64,000 nt of DNA from Phosphitispora fastidiosa (lineage in GTDB: Bacteria > Bacillota > Thermincolia > Thermincolales > UBA2595). Numbering within the stretch: the stretch's first letter is position 1; the number at the start of each line of letters is the position of its first letter. Shown in pieces: positions 13,970 to 21,983 of the stretch. Position numbers and translations under genes: made by a program. Where the stretch lies: the NCBI RefSeq assembly GCF_019008365.1, contig NZ_JAHHUL010000004.1, positions 62,001 through 126,000 on the forward strand. Direction: 5' to 3'. The notes under the pieces are model-generated. The model saw only the letters and a program-made list of their open reading frames with translations, made no database searches and was not told the origin of the DNA.

Positions 13970-14499
13970 TCACACATTGTTTCTTTCAAAATGCAATTCA
14001 GGGAGAACAATTCTTATCTCCTGTTCCTCTGCTTCCTTTCGCCAAAAAACAATGAAATTAACTTTGGCAAATTTAGGCTCATAACCATTATCCTGAACTC
14101 GCTCCAATAGCTCTGAACATTTTTTAGAAGTCCTGAAAACACTCTGCCCTCTGTCTGTAAGCCAATCTCCATCCTTATATCGCAGGATATCGCCACTTTG
14201 TAAAGACTCAACCAAATATTGCCGTCCGATGAAATAATCCAGCCATACATCCCGATGACTTAGCTGCATAGCAAGCTTCCCCGGCAATTGGTACTGACCC
14301 CTGTCTTCCAATCTTGTCATATCTTCCGTCTTGATATGATTCAGGTAACGCCTGTTTAAATGTATTACTAAATTATTTTTTGCCCGAGTCATTGCCACAT
14401 ACAACTGGCGCTTCTGTTCCGCTGTAGCTATCTCAAAGTTTTCAAGCAAAAGGAAAACATTATCAAATTCCTTGCCTTTTGCTTTATGAAGCAAGATAT
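13970..14499 (-). pseudogene. UvrD-type C-terminal tail of a RecQ-family helicase
   Basis: Encodes a superfamily-1 helicase end: LHKAKGKEFDNVFLLLENF and RQLYVAMTRAKNNLVIHLN (motifs V and VI), then about 140 residues. It has no start of its own. Reading upstream, the homologous frame is lost near 14499, where it meets the exonuclease-RecQ frame at a different phase. Large RecQ-family proteins with an exonuclease, RecQ core and UvrD-like tail are known; here the middle is missing and the tail is out of frame. Confidence 0.75.
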
Positions 14500-16880
14500 T
14501 TTTCAATACTGCTAAAGGACTCAAAAATCTGCAAAGAACGATTTGTTTTTTCACCTCTTTTAATATAAGCCGTGAGGTCTTTGGCATCTGCCAGAATCCC
14601 TTCTTCACGCAGCAGATTGAGTACACCGATGACTTTTTCTTTTTCAATCCCCAGATGGTCAGAGATATAGTCCACCCGTGACTCTGCAACCTGATCCTGA
14701 GCCTGGCTTCGGCTCCTGCTGGAAATAAGTTTTTTTATGATTCGTGTGGCGTTTTCCTTTTCTTTATCATCTAAAAGCTCTGATGCATTGATTCTTTCAA
14801 TGGCTTCCTGGGCATTTTTGCATAGTATACTGTCTGCAAACACCCTTGGCATGTTCTGGCCCCGCTGGATATACCCCGACTCCTCCAAGGCGGCAACAGC
14901 AGTTTTTACCCGCATTTCTATTTCACTAAACCTTTCATCCCAACCTGCCTTTCTGGCAATTTCCAGGGCGGATTGGGAAACGGTCATCCGAAAACGGGTA
15001 ATATCTTTGATGGCCTTCCAGATTTGCTGGATTTCCTTAATATTGATTTTAGTCTGATTCAATAATGCAAAGTGTTTATTTAAATCGTCCTCGCAATATA
15101 AGATATAGCAGTCCGCCGTAATTTGCTCATCCCGCCCGGCTCTGCCTGCCTCCTGGATGTAATTCTCCAGGGAATCGGATATTTCGAAGTGGATGACCAT
15201 ACCTACATCCTTCTTATCCACGCCCATGCCAAAAGCAGAGGTGGCCACCATGATGGGCACTTCCCCCGCAATAAAGGCATCCTGGTTTTCTGATTTCTCT
15301 TTCTTGTCCATTTTGCCATGATATGGCTTGGCCAGATATCCATCCTTGGTCAGCCTCTCGGCCAGCTCATAGGCTCTCCTTGTTCTGGAAACATAAATAA
15401 TGGTGGGACATTCCTTTTGTTGTATTAGGTTCCTCAGAGTACGGTACTTTTCTTCCTGACTTGCTTTTTCAATAACCTTGTATTTCAAGTTAGTCCGGGT
15501 GGCGCCGGAGCTGAAAATCTCCAAATCTATCGCCAGCTTATGCTTAAAGTACGCCTGAATATCTTCAATCACCTTTTGCTTGGCTGTGGCAGTAAAGCAG
15601 GATACCGGAATACCTTCGGCAAGGTTCTTCTTCTCCTGTATTGTTTTAATAAAATCACCAATATACAGATAATCCACGCGGAAATCCTGGCCCCATGCTG
15701 AAAAACAGTGGGCCTCATCAATGACAAAACGAACAATCTTTCTGCCCAGCAATAAATGTTCAATGGTTCTGGAACGTAAAGACTCCGGAGATATATACAA
15801 AATAGAAGCTGAGCCGTCCTCGACTCTTTCAAAAGACTTTGCCCGTTCAATGGGATCTAATAAACCATTGATTGTTACCGCATCCATAATCCCTGCTTTT
15901 TCCAGGTTGTCAACCTGATCTTTCATTAAAGACTGTAGTGGGGATATGACAACCGTGAGTCCTTTGACATTTTCCCCGCTCATTAAAGCAGGTACCTGGA
16001 AAGTAATCGACTTCCCGCCTCCGGTAGGAAAGACAGCCAAAAGAGATTTATTGTCAATGGCTGCTTTCACAGCGTCTTCCTGAAGCGGTTCTCCTCCAAA
16101 GGTTCTATAAGAATCAAATCCAAAAAACCATTTCAACCCCCGGCGTGCATCCAGGGTGCGCTCACAATAAGAACAGCCGCCAAGGCAGGGCCTGTTTCGC
16201 AAAAGATCCATTATCCGTTCCACTTCCGGATAATTCTTTAAAATCCAGGGTGGCGTAACGGAAAAACGATCCCTGACATTGATTACTGCGAGGGAATAAG
16301 CCAAGGCCACAGGATCTTCTTTAATAAATTCCCCAAGATCTGCATTTTCACAGATTTCTGAAGCAAAATGTTTTTTGATGAGCAGTACCGGTTCTTCTGC
16401 TGCTGTCCCGTAGTTTATATATTGGAAAAACGCCCGGAACTCTTTTTGATCCTGCAAAAGCGAAAAAAAGATCTGCTTTAATGGAACTTCTAAATTACGG
16501 AACGCAAACACTTCGTCTAAAAAGAGATCTTTGACTTTAATAGCATCATTTACAGGATTATTCAGTTCATCTGTCTGAAGCTTTTCATCTTTTACAAGGG
16601 CATGGTAAGGCTTCCGGGGAAACAGCAAGGCTGACAGATACAGTGTATCGATCACGTTTTCAGAAGCTATCCCAGGGTTCTCTAAAGCCTGCCGGATGTA
16701 TTTCAAGTCATGCTTAATAATGTTATGGCCACATAAATAGTCGGTATCTTTAATGAAAGTGACAAAGTCAGCTATGGATTTGGAATGAAACACATGTCCG
16801 GCATTTTTGATTCCGCCAATATCCAATATGGTTCCTTTACGTGGTTGAACTTCCAGATCAATAAAGGCGATGGATTTCAT
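14484..16880 (-). CDS. Exonuclease-RecQ helicase, truncated by internal deletion
   Basis: 798 residues. The N-terminus has a DEDD exonuclease pattern (FIDLEV, then HNIIKHDLKYI). From about residue 240 comes a RecQ-type ATPase: Walker A FPTGGGKSITF, DEAH box VIDEAHCFSAWGQDF and motif VI QEAGRAGRDEQ, then RecQ zinc/winged-helix-like regions with CYILYCEDD. It ends SSIEKYLAS where the frame runs into the remnant at 13970. ATG 16880 has AGGAG about 9 bases upstream; the in-frame GTG at 16901 is rejected. The RecQ part looks intact and might work, but as a gene it is probably broken. Confidence 0.78.
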   Translation of the reverse strand: MKSIAFIDLEVQPRKGTILDIGGIKNAGHVFHSKSIADFVTFIKDTDYLCGHNIIKHDLKYIRQALENPGIASENVIDTLYLSALLFPRKPYHALVKDEKLQTDELNNPVNDAIKVKDLFLDEVFAFRNLEVPLKQIFFSLLQDQKEFRAFFQYINYGTAAEEPVLLIKKHFASEICENADLGEFIKEDPVALAYSLAVINVRDRFSVTPPWILKNYPEVERIMDLLRNRPCLGGCSYCERTLDARRGLKWFFGFDSYRTFGGEPLQEDAVKAAIDNKSLLAVFPTGGGKSITFQVPALMSGENVKGLTVVISPLQSLMKDQVDNLEKAGIMDAVTINGLLDPIERAKSFERVEDGSASILYISPESLRSRTIEHLLLGRKIVRFVIDEAHCFSAWGQDFRVDYLYIGDFIKTIQEKKNLAEGIPVSCFTATAKQKVIEDIQAYFKHKLAIDLEIFSSGATRTNLKYKVIEKASQEEKYRTLRNLIQQKECPTIIYVSRTRRAYELAERLTKDGYLAKPYHGKMDKKEKSENQDAFIAGEVPIMVATSAFGMGVDKKDVGMVIHFEISDSLENYIQEAGRAGRDEQITADCYILYCEDDLNKHFALLNQTKINIKEIQQIWKAIKDITRFRMTVSQSALEIARKAGWDERFSEIEMRVKTAVAALEESGYIQRGQNMPRVFADSILCKNAQEAIERINASELLDDKEKENATRIIKKLISSRSRSQAQDQVAESRVDYISDHLGIEKEKVIGVLNLLREEGILADAKDLTAYIKRGEKTNRSLQIFESFSSIEKYLAS

Positions 16881-17136
16881 TCCCTGATAGCTCCTTTGCA
16901 CTAATATAATAAGATTCTTGAGAATTTATGTTCTGCATAACTGGATGTAAATCCTCTCTTCACAGAAATTCAAAAGACTACCTGCAAATATTCGCTGTCA
17001 ATTATTATTTCGGTAATTGTACTATCATCTTCGTATGTCATTTTAATAAACAGCCAAATTCAGCATGGCAATAATAAAACAGATACTTTTTGTACCGTTT
17101 TCCGTTTTTCATGTATACTTTTTAAAGATAATGGGT

Positions 17137-17142
17137 TATAAT
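17137..17142 (+). promoter_or_regulatory. Likely -10 element for the AAA/Toprim pair
   Basis: A perfect TATAAT 19 bases before the ATG at 17162; the -35 (TATACT 17 bases upstream) is weak. The rest of the 16881-17161 spacer is AT-rich and shows nothing else recognisable. Confidence 0.45.
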
Positions 17143-17161: not shown

Positions 17162-18580
17162 ATGGGAAAAATGGTTATAAGAATACTGAGAGCCGAAATC
17201 AATAATTTTCAAAATGTAGAACATGGAGCTCTGAGATTTGCTTGCAATCTTAAAGATGACATTTTTGAATCATCCTCTGATATTTTAGGAATTTATGGGC
17301 AGAATGGTTCTGGCAAAACAACCTTTATTCATGCACTCAGCGTACTGGATGCACTTCTTTCCGGAAGAAAACTGCCAAAAGAAACCGTAAATTTTATTAC
17401 CAAAGATAAAGATACTTCTCATTTTTCGTTTGAATTTGGTCTGAATGATGTAAAAAACTTCTATAGAGTGATTTATGATTTCAGTATAACTAAAAGAGAG
17501 AGAGATACATGGGAAGAAGATGATGAAGCTAACACCATTAATCCTGTTATAGTTTCATATGAAAAAATTCGATATTCTTACTTAGAAAATGGCATTTGGA
17601 GTAAACTTCGTACCCTTATTGATTGCAACCTAATTGAGGAAAAGGTTTTTAGACCGGATGCAAGATTGCAAGACTTAACGGGTGGAAGTTCAAAGATAGT
17701 TGACGAATTGCGAGTTGCTAAAAAGCTTGCTATCAAACAATCAACATCCTTTGTTTTTTCAAAAGAAACTCAAAAACAGATTGTACAAAATTGTACCGTT
17801 CAGTCGTATAAACAGATTCTTCGTGCTCTTTACCTTTTCGGACGTTTCGACTTGTATATCATCGGAAATAGAGATTCTGGTTTAATTTCCTTGAACATGG
17901 CAATACCTTTTAGTTTTAGGATGGAAAGAGACAACTCTCTTTCCATGGGCAGTATTTTTATTCGCCTTGATAAACCATCAGTTATACCTGAAGAAATTTA
18001 TATTCTTGTTGGTAAAGTAATTGAGGTAATGAATACTGTTTTATGTGAAATAATACCTGGCTTACAGGTCGGACTGCTCAACATGGGCAAACAAATCATG
18101 CAGGATGGAACAGAAGGCATAAGTGTTGAAATGGTTTCCATAAGAAATGAACGTAAAATTCCGTTACGATATGAGTCCGAAGGCATAAAGAAAATAATTT
18201 CTATTCTGCATATGTTAATTGCGATGCATAATAATCCATCAATGACTTTAGCAATTGATGAGCTTGATTCAGGAATATTTGAATATTTGTTAGGTGAACT
18301 CTTAAAAGTAGTGAGAGATTCTGGAAAAGGGCAACTTATTTTTACTTCCCACAATTTAAGACCTTTAGAAATGCTTCATAAAAGCTCTATTCTTTTCACT
18401 ACTACTAATCCAAACAATCGCTACATTCGATTAACTAATGTAAAAACTAATAACAATTTGAGAGATTTATATTACCATGATCTCATTCTTGGGGGCCAAA
18501 AAGAGAGCATTTATGAGGCAACCAATAGTTTCGCCATTGCCCGTGCCTTAAGAATGGCAGGTGCAAACATTGAAAAATAA
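17162..18580 (+). CDS. AAA/ABC-type ATPase of a two-gene cassette
   Basis: 472 residues, resembling AAA_15/AAA_21 (OLD-like) ATPases: Walker A YGQNGSGKTTF (about 47-57), an ABC-like signature ESEGIKKI, Walker B TLAIDELDSG and a switch His in IFTSHNLRP. About 300 residues between Walker A and the signature form the expected insert. ATG 17162 is chosen since GGAGG (17150-17154) is 7 bases away and too close to ATG 17156. It overlaps the downstream Toprim-like gene by 11 bases, so the products are probably translationally coupled partners. The gene is more AT-rich than its neighbours, suggesting transfer. Similar ATPase/Toprim pairs include anti-phage systems, but the exact type is not established. 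Confidence 0.75.
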   Translation: MGKMVIRILRAEINNFQNVEHGALRFACNLKDDIFESSSDILGIYGQNGSGKTTFIHALSVLDALLSGRKLPKETVNFITKDKDTSHFSFEFGLNDVKNFYRVIYDFSITKRERDTWEEDDEANTINPVIVSYEKIRYSYLENGIWSKLRTLIDCNLIEEKVFRPDARLQDLTGGSSKIVDELRVAKKLAIKQSTSFVFSKETQKQIVQNCTVQSYKQILRALYLFGRFDLYIIGNRDSGLISLNMAIPFSFRMERDNSLSMGSIFIRLDKPSVIPEEIYILVGKVIEVMNTVLCEIIPGLQVGLLNMGKQIMQDGTEGISVEMVSIRNERKIPLRYESEGIKKIISILHMLIAMHNNPSMTLAIDELDSGIFEYLLGELLKVVRDSGKGQLIFTSHNLRPLEMLHKSSILFTTTNPNNRYIRLTNVKTNNNLRDLYYHDLILGGQKESIYEATNSFAIARALRMAGANIEK

Positions 18581-19019
18581 GAAAATCCTTCTTTTCATAG
18601 TGGAAGGTATTACAGATCAAACCTGTCTCGGTTTTGTATTAAGCAAAATTTTGAATAGTAATAAAGTAGAATTTGCACTTATCTATGGCGACATTACCAG
18701 TAAAACCGGCATTGATTCAAACAATATTGCTACAGAGATAGGGGAAATTGTAAAACAATTTAGCGGGAAGATATTTAAGGCTAGCGACTTTATTGAAATT
18801 GTACATTTAGTTGACATGGATGGAGCCTATATTAAATTTCAAATTTTTGTTGATAATGTTGAAGCAATACTACATAGAAACAAGCAAAAATCAGATAAAT
18901 TCGTTTGTGCAGAACATTTTGAAAATAGCTATGGCTGCTCACCCAAACGATTTTTAGATTTTTTAAACACCCCGGAAATTGCAGTTCAAAAACGAGCGAT
19001 TAGGGCGATAAACCCCTAA
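18570..19019 (+). CDS. Toprim-like partner protein
   Basis: 149 residues. ILLFIVEGITDQ gives the conserved Glu and IVHLVDMDGAYI the DxD of a Toprim-type metal site, so a nuclease or nucleotidyl function is inferred. TTG 18570 is preceded by AGGTG inside the end of the ATPase gene. The stop codon lies inside a hairpin that may be its terminator. The protein is short for this class, and a tmRNA-derived repeat begins 77 bases downstream, so 3' truncation by an integration event is possible. Confidence 0.6.
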   Translation: MKNKKILLFIVEGITDQTCLGFVLSKILNSNKVEFALIYGDITSKTGIDSNNIATEIGEIVKQFSGKIFKASDFIEIVHLVDMDGAYIKFQIFVDNVEAILHRNKQKSDKFVCAEHFENSYGCSPKRFLDFLNTPEIAVQKRAIRAINP

Positions 19020-19021
19020 TC
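18998..19021 (+). terminator. Hairpin at the end of the Toprim-like gene
   Basis: Stem GATTAGGG/CCCTAATC (18998-19005 with 19014-19021) including the stop codon, followed by an AT-rich run without a clean T-tract. Confidence 0.4.
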
Positions 19022-19095
19022 ATTCGTATTTATTTTACAGCAACATCGTAACAACAAAGCCGCCGTTAAGATAATAGGTGCTCTTGTAATACTCT

Positions 19096-19117
19096 TTTGG
19101 TGGAGGTGAGGGGAATC
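19096..19117. repeat. Copy of the tmRNA 3' end (candidate attachment site)
   Basis: 22 bp identical, in the same orientation, to 21631-21652, which is the last 20 bases of the tmRNA including CCA plus two bases beyond. It sits at the start of the pseudouridine synthase gene. Direct repeats of an ssrA 3' end are the usual trace of tyrosine-recombinase integration. No integrase is present in the window. Confidence 0.8.
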
Positions 19118-19129
19118 AGTGAGGAAAAA

Positions 19130-20032
19130 TTGAACAATACACAGCTAACATACACAGCAGGTGCTCTGGATCAGGATACTTTTCTGCGGGACATACTATC
19201 CGTTAAACTTTTATTGTCCCATTCTCTGGTAGTACGGCTTAAGCAACAGAGCAAAATAAAGGTGAACGGGTATCCGTCCTATACCAACTACCGCATCAAC
19301 GCGGGGGATATTATCACCATTGATATAAATTTCACCGAGGAGAGCAAAATTATACCGGAGTCGATTCCTCTGGACATAGTTTACGAAGACATGGACTTCC
19401 TGGTGGTGAATAAGCCCGCGGGTATGTCCACTCACCCATCCCGCCCAGGAGGTACCGGTACCCTGGCTAACGCGGTAACTTATTACTGGCAGAGGTCGGG
19501 AAGAAGCACTCTTTTTCGCCCGATAAACCGCCTGGATAAAGATACTTCAGGGTTGATCCTGATAGGGAATAGCCAGTTTGCACACCAGGGCATATTCAAC
19601 CAGGTAAAGGGCCGCATCATTGAGCGGAGGTATATTGCTTTGGTAGAGGGAACAATGGCAAAAGACAGCGGTCGTATCGACCAACCAATCGCCCGGGAAG
19701 ATGATAAAGGTCGCCGGAGAATAGTCCGTTCAGATGGTTATCCGGCAGTCACCCATTATAAGGTACTTGATATATATCCGGGGTACACCCTGCTATCATT
19801 AAGACTGGAGACCGGTCGCACCCACCAGATAAGGGTGCATCTGAGCTCTCTTGGCCATCCGGTATGCGGTGACCTCCTGTACGGGTATGATTCACCATTA
19901 ATAAATCGACAAGCTCTACATGCCAACAAGCTACGCTTCACCCACCCCCGCAGCGGAAAAGAAGTAATTCTGGATGTTCCATTGGCGGCGGACATCCAGG
20001 CCGCTGTTGACAAGTTAAGCCAGCTCTGTTAA
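19130..20032 (+). CDS. RluA/RluD-family pseudouridine synthase
   Basis: About 300 residues, converting specific uridines of rRNA or tRNA to pseudouridine. An S4-like N-terminal RNA-binding region (FLRDILSVKLLLS, then KVNGYPSYTNYRI) precedes the catalytic domain with the Asp in RLDKDTSGLIL and the conserved ETGRTHQIRVHL. The start is uncertain: TTG 19130 has GAGG 5 bases upstream, but GTG codons at 19100 and 19106 are also in frame inside the tmRNA-derived repeat. The last four codons and stop lie inside a second tmRNA-derived block. Both ends of the gene are thus made of tmRNA sequence. Confidence 0.85.
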   Translation: MNNTQLTYTAGALDQDTFLRDILSVKLLLSHSLVVRLKQQSKIKVNGYPSYTNYRINAGDIITIDINFTEESKIIPESIPLDIVYEDMDFLVVNKPAGMSTHPSRPGGTGTLANAVTYYWQRSGRSTLFRPINRLDKDTSGLILIGNSQFAHQGIFNQVKGRIIERRYIALVEGTMAKDSGRIDQPIAREDDKGRRRIVRSDGYPAVTHYKVLDIYPGYTLLSLRLETGRTHQIRVHLSSLGHPVCGDLLYGYDSPLINRQALHANKLRFTHPRSGKEVILDVPLAADIQAAVDKLSQLC

Positions 20033-20040
20033 ATGACCTC
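20019..20040. repeat. Copy of an internal tmRNA segment
   Basis: 22 bp identical to 21797-21818 inside the tmRNA gene, same orientation, with three further matches after one mismatch. It contains the stop codon of the pseudouridine synthase gene. Confidence 0.8.
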
Positions 20041-20063
20041 TTCTAAAATCATACAGTACTATT

Positions 20064-20530: not shown

Positions 20531-21607
20531 GTGGGAGACCGGTTTATCAATGGTGAAGCCCTTATCCCTATATTGGATAGGCCAATAAATGACAGCTACA
20601 GTTATCTTGCGGAGAAATATGGTATCTTCTTACAACCTTTAAGCAACATTAAAAGTATTACTTTTTACTCGGAAAACAAAGTGGCTACCTTGAGTGGTTA
20701 TTTAGGTTTTCTTAACTCAAGGGGAAGACATTCTCAATCTTTTGAAAACCAACTTTCAAAACAAGTCAAATCAGATATCATCTTTAACTCAAATGTTACA
20801 TATGAACAATTATTAAAAGATTTTACCCATGTAATATTGGCCACAGGTGACGCTGCTTATGCCTCCAAAATCCAGGACTTTAAAGTAGACTTAACAGTGA
20901 CACTCAAAGGCGCTACTGTGGAAGGTAAATTCGACCGTTTTAGCGCGGCAATTTGGTTGGACAATAACCTTGCCCCGAAAGGATACGGGTATTTAATGCC
21001 CTTTTCAGAACGGGAAGCTTCAATCACTATTGGTTATCCAGATTATCCCGAGAACCGGTCAAAAGACATTAACGCTATTTGGGGTAACTTTTATGATAGA
21101 GTATGTACTAACTTAAATCAAAACCTTAAGGTCACCGACAACTTTGAAATTACCAGGTACATAATTGGTCAATGTCAATCCCCGCGTTTAGGAAACACCT
21201 TTTTCGTGGGCAATTGTTTCGGTGCCATTATGCCAGCCTTTGGGTTTGGGCAGTTGCCTGCAATGTTGACAGGGGTCTATGCGGCTTTTGACTTGGTTTG
21301 TAAAGGGAATTACGCTGAGCTGGTCAAACATTTACAAGAAAGCTATAATAATTCGCTGGTTATTCGTCGCTCCATGGAACAATTAGATAACCGCAAGTTA
21401 GATATATTGGTCTCCCTCTTTAATACAAAATTAGCTAACTATATATTTAATAATCAAAAGATAAACCCGTTTAAAACGGCAAGTTATCTCTTAAAACCAC
21501 AAGTTAAAATCAGAGCCGCACTGAATAAAAACTCCAGAATGGTACGTAAGAGGATTAATTCACCCCCGTCGAACCCCTCCTCAAAGAAAAACAAAAACTC
21601 AGGCTAA
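20531..21607 (+). pseudogene. FAD-dependent oxidoreductase, N-terminus missing
   Basis: 358 codons similar to geranylgeranyl-reductase-like flavoproteins: THVILATGDAAYASK, GYGYLMPFSEREASITIGYP and FFVGNCFGAIMPAFGFGQLPA are recognisable. The N-terminal GxGxxG dinucleotide-binding segment (about 40 residues) is absent, and an in-frame TAG directly precedes the GTG at 20531. The last residues (SSKKNKNSG) are encoded by the opposite strand of the tmRNA terminator. Both ends therefore look cut. Confidence 0.75.
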
Positions 21608-21620: not shown

Positions 21621-21632
21621 AATTTATATATT

Positions 21633-21983
21633 TGGTGGAGGTGAGGGGAATCGAACCCCTGTCCAGAAGAGAACCCACATAAGCTTCTCCGAGCGCAGTC
21701 AGGTAATTTAAATTTCGCTCACTGACCGCCTACCGACAAGCTGTCAGGTCACTATCTCGATAAATCTCGCCTCACCCCTCCGAGAATTGAGGATTGGCCA
21801 GCTCTGTTAAATGACCTCATCTACCTCACACAGAGCACAGAAGTAGAGAGGTTGGGCAGCAATTAAGCTGCTAAAGCGTAATCGTTATTAGCGTTTAAAT
21901 GTTTTCCACCGTGTTAACGGGCTTGTGGGACCCCGGCTCGCTGCCTATGCTTATTCTTCCCCCGTCGAAACCAGTACACCCCC
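21633..21983 (-). ncRNA. ssrA: tmRNA (transfer-messenger RNA)
   Basis: 351 nt. The 5' GGGGGTG pairs with 3' CACCTCC (one G-U pair), followed by ACCA, forming the tRNA-like acceptor. GGTTTCGACGGGG is the conserved 5' region and GGGGTTCGATTCCCC the T-arm. The tag frame GCTAATAACGATTACGC onward encodes ANNDYALAA then TAA, ending in the protease-recognised LAA. It works with SmpB, encoded just upstream, to rescue stalled ribosomes. A segment at 21797-21818 and the 3' end are repeated at 20019 and 19096. Confidence 0.97.

What the first reader, a model, noticed from the sequence alone, without database searches (positions are those of the whole stretch)
17162..19019. AAA ATPase / Toprim-like gene pair as a candidate defence cassette
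A 472-residue OLD-like ATPase overlaps a 149-residue protein with a Glu...DxD Toprim-like site. The pair is AT-rich, has its own -10 element, and sits in a scarred region next to an ssrA repeat. ATPase plus Toprim partners are the architecture of several anti-phage systems (OLD-type, Gabija, PARIS), but the small separate Toprim protein does not clearly match one of them by eye.
Basis: inference. Interest (0 to 1): 0.62.

Follow-up and report, generated by a model that had tools for sequence, protein, structure and literature searches.

The report
Worn-out ATPase–Toprim phage-defence pair
This is a two-gene cassette of a kind that probably defends bacteria against phages (an ATP-powered sensor plus a nuclease), but in this genome the nuclease gene has lost about 40% of its length, including part of its likely active site, so it is most likely a decaying copy rather than a working new system.

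Summary
In detail: an AT-rich operon (GC 0.34; window 0.46) encodes a 472-aa ABC/SMC-type ATPase (A, 17162-18580) overlapping a 149-residue ORF (B, 18570-19019) with Toprim motifs ExxxD and DxD. It is not housekeeping: of ten genomes searched in its class only this one has A, and the pair recurs, overlapping or abutting, in 16 loci on Firmicute chromosomes, plasmids, prophages and a C. difficile phage. In those 16, B has 224-270 residues. The window's B is therefore not a naturally small Toprim protein. Against its closest relative (A 82% identical) it lacks 25 residues, then 40 (predicted strand β4 and the invariant S..NL[DE]H motif), then the last 34. Seven of 16 invariant family positions are gone; the metal-A residues remain. 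A is intact. The likeliest account is a decayed split ATPase–Toprim cassette, AbiL/PARIS-like in working. It is not AbiL, because B fails the AbiLii/RloB models. It lies in an ssrA-adjacent hot spot: the sister genome carries a candidate defence cassette (PDC-M69-like) in the same interval. This subfamily was not found as a named system in PADLOC or Pfam. Whether the shortened B, or A alone, still acts is open.

The parts
17137..17142 (+). -10-like TATAAT; left edge of the cassette's DNA similarity to L002
   Evidence: blastn similarity to L002 begins at 17137; ATAATAGCT and GGAGGG shared with L002; generic promoter scan not above chance
17162..18580 (+). Gene A: 472-aa ABC/SMC-type ATPase (AbiLi/AriA-like), intact, GQNGSGKT Walker A and AIDELD Walker B
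   Evidence: Pfam AAA_21 3.5e-13; PADLOC AbiLi 2.8e-28; family alignment; AF2 model pLDDT 79 resembling Rad50 and retron PtuA
18570..19019 (+). Gene B: 149-aa remnant of a ~240-aa Toprim-like protein; keeps E12, D16, D82, D84
   Evidence: tblastn with full-length relative L002 B, 1e-51, with 65 gap positions; alignments
18833..18834 (+). Junction of missing segment 1 (25 codons of L002 B, in frame), after DGAYI
   Evidence: codon alignment; alignment
18893..18894 (+). Junction of missing segment 2 (40 codons of L002 B, in frame): strand beta-4 and the conserved YFFSCNLDH motif
   Evidence: codon alignment; family motif; predicted strand E149-155
18990..19019 (+). Unrelated 3' tail KRAIRAINP replacing the last 34 residues of the family (TWDFI...NSLKRYTNF)
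   Evidence: similarity to L002 ends at 18989; no match for 18985-19096 elsewhere in ten class genomes
19096..19117 (+). 22-bp exact copy of the ssrA 3' end
20018..20044 (+). 27-bp copy (96%) of an internal ssrA segment
21633..21983 (-). ssrA (tmRNA), whose 3' end faces the variable interval
   Evidence: ARAGORN; Rfam RF00023

Best explanation
The locus is a decaying copy of a mobile two-gene phage-defence (abortive-infection or toxin-antitoxin type) cassette. In intact relatives, A is an ABC ATPase that would assemble, hold or silence its partner and sense infection; B is a two-metal Toprim nuclease that would be released or switched on to cut nucleic acid and stop growth. Shown here: A/B pairing, mobility, motifs, predicted folds, and the loss of segments from B in this genome. 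Inferred: the defence role, the sensor/effector split, nuclease activity of full-length B, and its loss here. In the window, A is complete but B has lost beta-4, the S..NL[DE]H motif that I infer to be the metal-B site, and the C-terminal helix, so the effector should be inactive. The cassette sits between ssrA and a large helicase gene, an interval whose content changes between sister genomes.
For: A hits AbiLi at 2.8e-28 and AriA at 9.3e-14, and its model matches Rad50 and retron PtuA structures at about 1e-9. Sixteen loci carry A with full-length B (224-270 aa), overlapping or abutting. In 398 phylum genomes, all five with a strong A relative also have B sequence; the sixth B genome is cut 101 bases from a contig end. 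Carriers include plasmids, a C. difficile phage and proviral contigs beside phage structural genes. Window B aligns to L002 B with 25- and 40-residue gaps and no C-terminus; of 16 family-invariant positions it lacks Y112, Y154, S157, L160, H162, W212 and N227. Three other relatives also have broken or rearranged A or B: L133, L127 and G081. The same interval holds XRE-ImmA-PIN (PDC-M69-like) in sister genome G006. In Bp OLD, removing the metal-B ligands together abolishes nuclease activity on linear DNA while some nicking remains; deleting the helical domain impairs both (PMC6755086). AbiLii of F. nucleatum is toxic in E. coli (PMC3985639), and AAA ATPases paired with TOPRIM_OLD toxins behaved as toxin-antitoxin pairs (PMC10440598).
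Against: Both internal losses are in frame and the ORF stays open, which chance gives about once in nine for two deletions. Codons kept in B show constraint against L002 (dN/dS 0.295 against 0.098 in A). An intact control pair shows a similar ratio (B 0.136, A 0.053), so there is no clear sign of relaxed selection. No assay of any member exists in what I read. The Toprim assignment rests on motifs and topology: no structure hit for B passed E 0.001, although PARIS (8ux9) and Bp OLD (6nk8) appear among the weak hits. RloB/OLD profile comparisons align only around motif 1.
Confidence: 0.74

Rival explanations
1. The shortened B is a working, minimised Toprim or regulatory subunit and the cassette is active here.
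For: Both internal losses are in frame, the ORF is open, catalytic E12, D16, D82 and D84 are kept, and kept codons are constrained.
Against: The lost pieces include a core beta-strand, the most conserved motif and the C-terminal helix; none of 16 intact relatives is this short; another relative (L133) has an even larger B deletion, which suggests decay.
Confidence: 0.1
2. A alone is the useful part: a stand-alone ATPase retained after its partner was lost.
For: Relatives L004, L011 and L134 have a full A and no detectable B. In E. [quoted passage not shown]
Against: Most A genes keep B; in phage contig L127 it is A that was lost and B kept, so retention of A is not a rule.
Confidence: 0.1
3. 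A fully functional new defence system with an unusually small Toprim protein.
For: ATPase plus Toprim motifs in one operon in a variable region.
Against: The small size is explained by losses relative to 16 full-length relatives.
Confidence: 0.02
4. The gaps in B are a sequencing or assembly error and the cassette is intact in the organism.
For: Draft genome of 239 contigs; only one copy is available to read.
Against: Two exact in-frame gaps plus an unrelated 3' tail followed by scar sequence (ssrA fragments) are not typical assembly errors; the neighbouring helicase gene has also lost about 1.9 kb relative to the sister genome.
Confidence: 0.03
5. A housekeeping repair or chromosome-maintenance gene pair.
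For: The A fold resembles Rad50 and RecF.
Against: Absent from the two other genomes of its genus and from all other genomes of the ten searched in its class; patchy, carried by plasmids and phages.
Confidence: 0.01

Closest known systems
AbiL (AbiLi ATPase + AbiLii/RloB Toprim), Lactococcus
   Same: Two-gene operon, ATPase first then Toprim-like effector; A matches the AbiLi model at 2.8e-28; both effectors carry an E motif, DxD and a later S/N...[DE] motif
   Different: A scores 97 bits where AbiLi genes beside RloB score 245-345; B and its relatives match neither AbiLii PDLC02337 nor Pfam RloB, while real RloB neighbours do
PARIS (AriA + AriB)
   Same: Separate ABC ATPase and Toprim proteins; the AriA model hits A at 9.3e-14; PARIS 8ux9 is among the weak fold hits of B
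   Different: No AriB/DUF4435 match for B; the AriA hit is weaker than AbiLi
OLD nucleases, class 1 and class 2 (Gabija GajA)
   Same: ATPase plus Toprim chemistry; motif 1 similar to OLD Toprim (VEGITD)
   Different: Two proteins instead of one; no GajB partner
NetFlax AAA(D29):TOPRIM_OLD pairs (C. algidicarnis D44, S. agalactiae D60)
   Same: ATPase antitoxin and Toprim toxin in one operon (PMC10440598)
   Different: D44 is RloB; whether D60 is this B family could not be tested
PADLOC HEC-01 (HEC-01A + HEC-01B)
   Same: Weak HEC-01A hit for A (5.3e-6) and HEC-01B hits for single B relatives, best 6e-4
   Different: Most B members have no hit

Membership tests
AbiL | AbiLi-type ATPase | tested here: inconclusive
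   PDLC02335 at 2.8e-28, about 97 bits; AbiLi genes next to RloB in the same phylum reach 245-345 bits: a sister clade rather than AbiLi proper
AbiL | AbiLii/RloB partner | tested here: not met
   No AbiLii or RloB hit for B or full-length relatives; five real RloB neighbours hit PDLC02337 at 2.4e-11 to 7.4e-34
PARIS | AriB (DUF4435 Toprim) partner | tested here: not met
   No AriB or DUF4435 hit among Pfam and PADLOC results for the 12 B members
OLD class 1 / Gabija GajA | ATPase and Toprim in one polypeptide (plus GajB helicase for Gabija) | tested here: not met
   Separate overlapping genes in all pairs; no GajB next to A/B
Split ABC-ATPase/Toprim systems (general kind) | ABC-type ATPase with Walker motifs, gene overlapping or abutting a separate Toprim gene | tested here: met
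   A motifs and fold; pairing in 16 intact loci
Split ABC-ATPase/Toprim systems (general kind) | Toprim fold with Glu, DxD and metal-B residues in the effector | tested here: inconclusive
   Family: ExxxD, DxD and S..NL[DE] conserved, model topology b-a-b-a-b-a-b with pLDDT 85, but no significant fold hit. Window B lacks beta-4 and the third motif
Split ABC-ATPase/Toprim systems (general kind) | Anti-phage activity or effector toxicity neutralised by the ATPase | not testable with these tools
   Needs expression, plaque and toxicity assays

The most novel reading that the evidence does not exclude
The shortened B is a selected form: a Toprim stripped of its metal-B half that still binds A and turns the pair into a non-nucleolytic, ATPase-driven defence or regulatory unit.
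Probability: 0.1. Interest if true: 0.55.

Novelty: new member of a known kind. Interest (0 to 1): 0.3.

Why it matters
The intact relatives form a distinct ATPase–Toprim subfamily, spread over Firmicute plasmids and prophages, that PADLOC would at best call AbiLi with no partner; the full-length pairs are good assay candidates. The window copy warns that a 'small Toprim partner' can be an effector that has lost segments. It also shows that the ssrA-adjacent interval in this genus is worth mining, since it changes content between sister genomes and holds defence-like cassettes in at least two.

Tried and rejected
Profile libraries on window B alone gave nothing useful, only DUF4276 at 0.04 and a meaningless THAP hit, because B is truncated. 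PDB sequence searches with B or its family gave only chance hits. Fold searches of full-length B against PDB and BFVD gave no hit below 0.001; RloB, PARIS, Topo II and Bp OLD appear only as weak hits. RloB or OLD homology by profile-profile comparison was not established. A rule that the ATPase always outlives the Toprim was considered and dropped, because L127 keeps B and has lost most of A. dN/dS did not show relaxed selection on B beyond an intact control. The origin of the 3' tail 18990-19095 was not found in ten class genomes. A single-sequence scan of viral contigs with A found nothing; the alignment scans worked.

Full report
Observation. The two ORFs, their overlap, the AT-richness and the ssrA repeat are all present. 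A (17162-18580) is a 472-aa ABC-type ATPase with Walker A GQNGSGKT and Walker B AIDELD. It matches Pfam AAA_21 (3.5e-13) and, among defence models, AbiLi best (2.8e-28) and AriA next (9.3e-14). B (18570-19019) carries IVEGITD near its start and VDMDG later.

Relatives. The closest relative found is in a Pelotomaculum MAG (L002; A 82% identical over aligned residues), then L003 (61%), then a spread at 33-46%. The pair recurs as adjacent genes, overlapping by up to 26 bp, in 16 loci with full-length B: chromosomes (L002, L003, L005, L006, L085-L087), plasmids of Lysinibacillus, Ruminococcus and Paenibacillus (L009, L010, L012), the C. difficile phage record pCD1602_4 (L008) and viral-collection contigs (L129-L132, L135), several of them beside phage structural genes. 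In a sample of 398 genomes of the phylum, five have a strong A relative and all five have B sequence. The sixth genome with B (G097) is cut by a contig end 101 bases away. Of ten genomes searched in the class, including two sister genomes of the genus, only this one has A. So this is an accessory, mobile cassette and not housekeeping.

B is truncated. In the 16 intact loci B has 224-270 residues. Window B aligns to L002 B with 25 residues missing after DGAYI, 40 missing after RNKQKS, and the last 34 replaced by an unrelated tail of nine residues. The family alignment has 16 invariant columns. The window keeps V11, E12, G13, D41, D73, D82, D84, K132 and K175 and lacks Y112, Y154, S157, L160, H162, W212 and N227. 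The AlphaFold2 model of full-length L002 B (pLDDT 85) shows b1-a1-b2-a2-b3-a3-b4 followed by helices, with E12 after b1 and D82/D84 after b3, as expected of a Toprim core. The missing 40-residue segment contains b4 (149-155) and the S157-C-N-L-D161-H motif. In B. pseudomallei OLD, E400/D455/D457 bind metal A, and E404/T506/E508 bind metal B, with E508 in the first helix of the helical domain; removing the metal-B set abolishes activity on linear DNA although some nicking remains, and deleting the helical domain impairs both (PMC6755086). By position, E12=E400, D16=E404, D82/D84=D455/D457 and S157/D161=T506/E508; that mapping is my inference. Window B would keep metal A and lose metal B and the helical part.

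Decay or adaptation. Both internal losses are in frame, and the kept codons of B are constrained relative to L002 (dN/dS 0.295; A 0.098). An intact control pair (L086/L087) shows a similar B-to-A ratio (0.136; 0.053), so the losses look recent or B may still be under some constraint. Broken states recur in the family: L133 joins B residues 1-23 to about 184-236, L127 keeps B but only the last 58 residues of A, G081 has rearranged pieces of A and a partial B, and L004, L011 and L134 have A without detectable B. This favours turnover and decay, without excluding a function for A alone.

Setting. The cassette lies between ssrA and a large RecQ-like helicase gene. In sister genome G006 the same interval (L084 4661-6758) holds XRE, ImmA-type peptidase and PIN-like genes matching PADLOC candidate PDC-M69A/B/C. 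In the window an exact 22-bp copy of the ssrA 3' end lies at 19096-19117 and another ssrA piece at 20018-20044. Related genomes G003, G005 and G009 carry further ssrA fragments downstream of ssrA. This fits repeated integration at the ssrA 3' end; the integrase involved was not identified.

How it likely works. Intact pairs should behave as other split ATPase–Toprim systems do: AbiL, where AbiLii is called a TOPRIM_OLD toxic effector (PMC10440598) and a homologous AbiLii is toxic in E. coli (PMC3985639, although its AbiLi did not neutralise it there), and PARIS, where AriA is sensor and AriB a two-metal Toprim tRNase (PMC12409363). For the present family the sensor/effector roles and the nucleic-acid target are inferred, not shown. 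In the window the effector is probably dead.

Membership. Not AbiL (B fails AbiLii/RloB, with positive controls passing), not PARIS, not OLD class 1 or Gabija. It belongs to the general kind of split ABC-ATPase/Toprim systems, as a subfamily I did not find named in PADLOC or Pfam. The Toprim assignment of B is supported by motifs and topology but not by a significant fold or profile hit.

Noticed in passing
window 19096-19117, 20018-20044; G003:C60 6624-20756, G005:C36 278335 and 280392, G009:C37 22565 (L154-L156): Fragments of the ssrA 3' part are scattered downstream of ssrA in several genomes of the family (six extra pieces over 16 kb in G003), like a row of old integration scars with different genes between them.
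   Followed up: partly
L084 4918-6618 (G006): XRE / ImmA-type peptidase / PIN-like cassette (PADLOC PDC-M69-like) occupies the ssrA-helicase interval in the sister genome.
   Followed up: partly
window 13970-16901; L084 6774-11579: A 1601-aa RecQ plus UvrD helicase of the sister genome G006 is broken in the window by loss of about 1.9 kb, leaving an 805-aa N part and a C-terminal remnant.
   Followed up: partly
window 20531-21607; L155 3615-4772 (G005): FAD/NAD-binding oxidoreductase ORF next to ssrA starts about 35 residues inside its 385-aa relative in G005, so it lacks the nucleotide-binding N-terminus and is probably a pseudogene.
   Followed up: partly
window 19118-20017; L082 7946-8031 and 10974-11864 (G006): The rluA-like gene's DNA similarity to G006 starts exactly after the ssrA repeat and it lies elsewhere in G006, where its 3' end is also duplicated about 3 kb upstream: it appears to have been moved into the ssrA scar region.
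   Followed up: partly
L084 4601-4658; window 21631-21690; L155 1618-1675: The T-stem of ssrA in G006 (GCGGG/CCCGC) differs from the window and G005 (AGGGG/CCCCT) on both sides of the stem, as if the ssrA 3' end had been swapped by an integrated element.
   Followed up: partly
L129 6406-8663: In a viral-collection contig the A/B pair is followed directly by a true AbiLi-type gene (PADLOC 9e-90): two ATPase defence genes side by side.
   Followed up: no
L003 86-2857: Immediately upstream of the A/B pair in L003 lies a 923-aa PrimPol-helicase-PLD-like protein (PrimPol 4.8e-99), resembling conflict-system genes.
   Followed up: no
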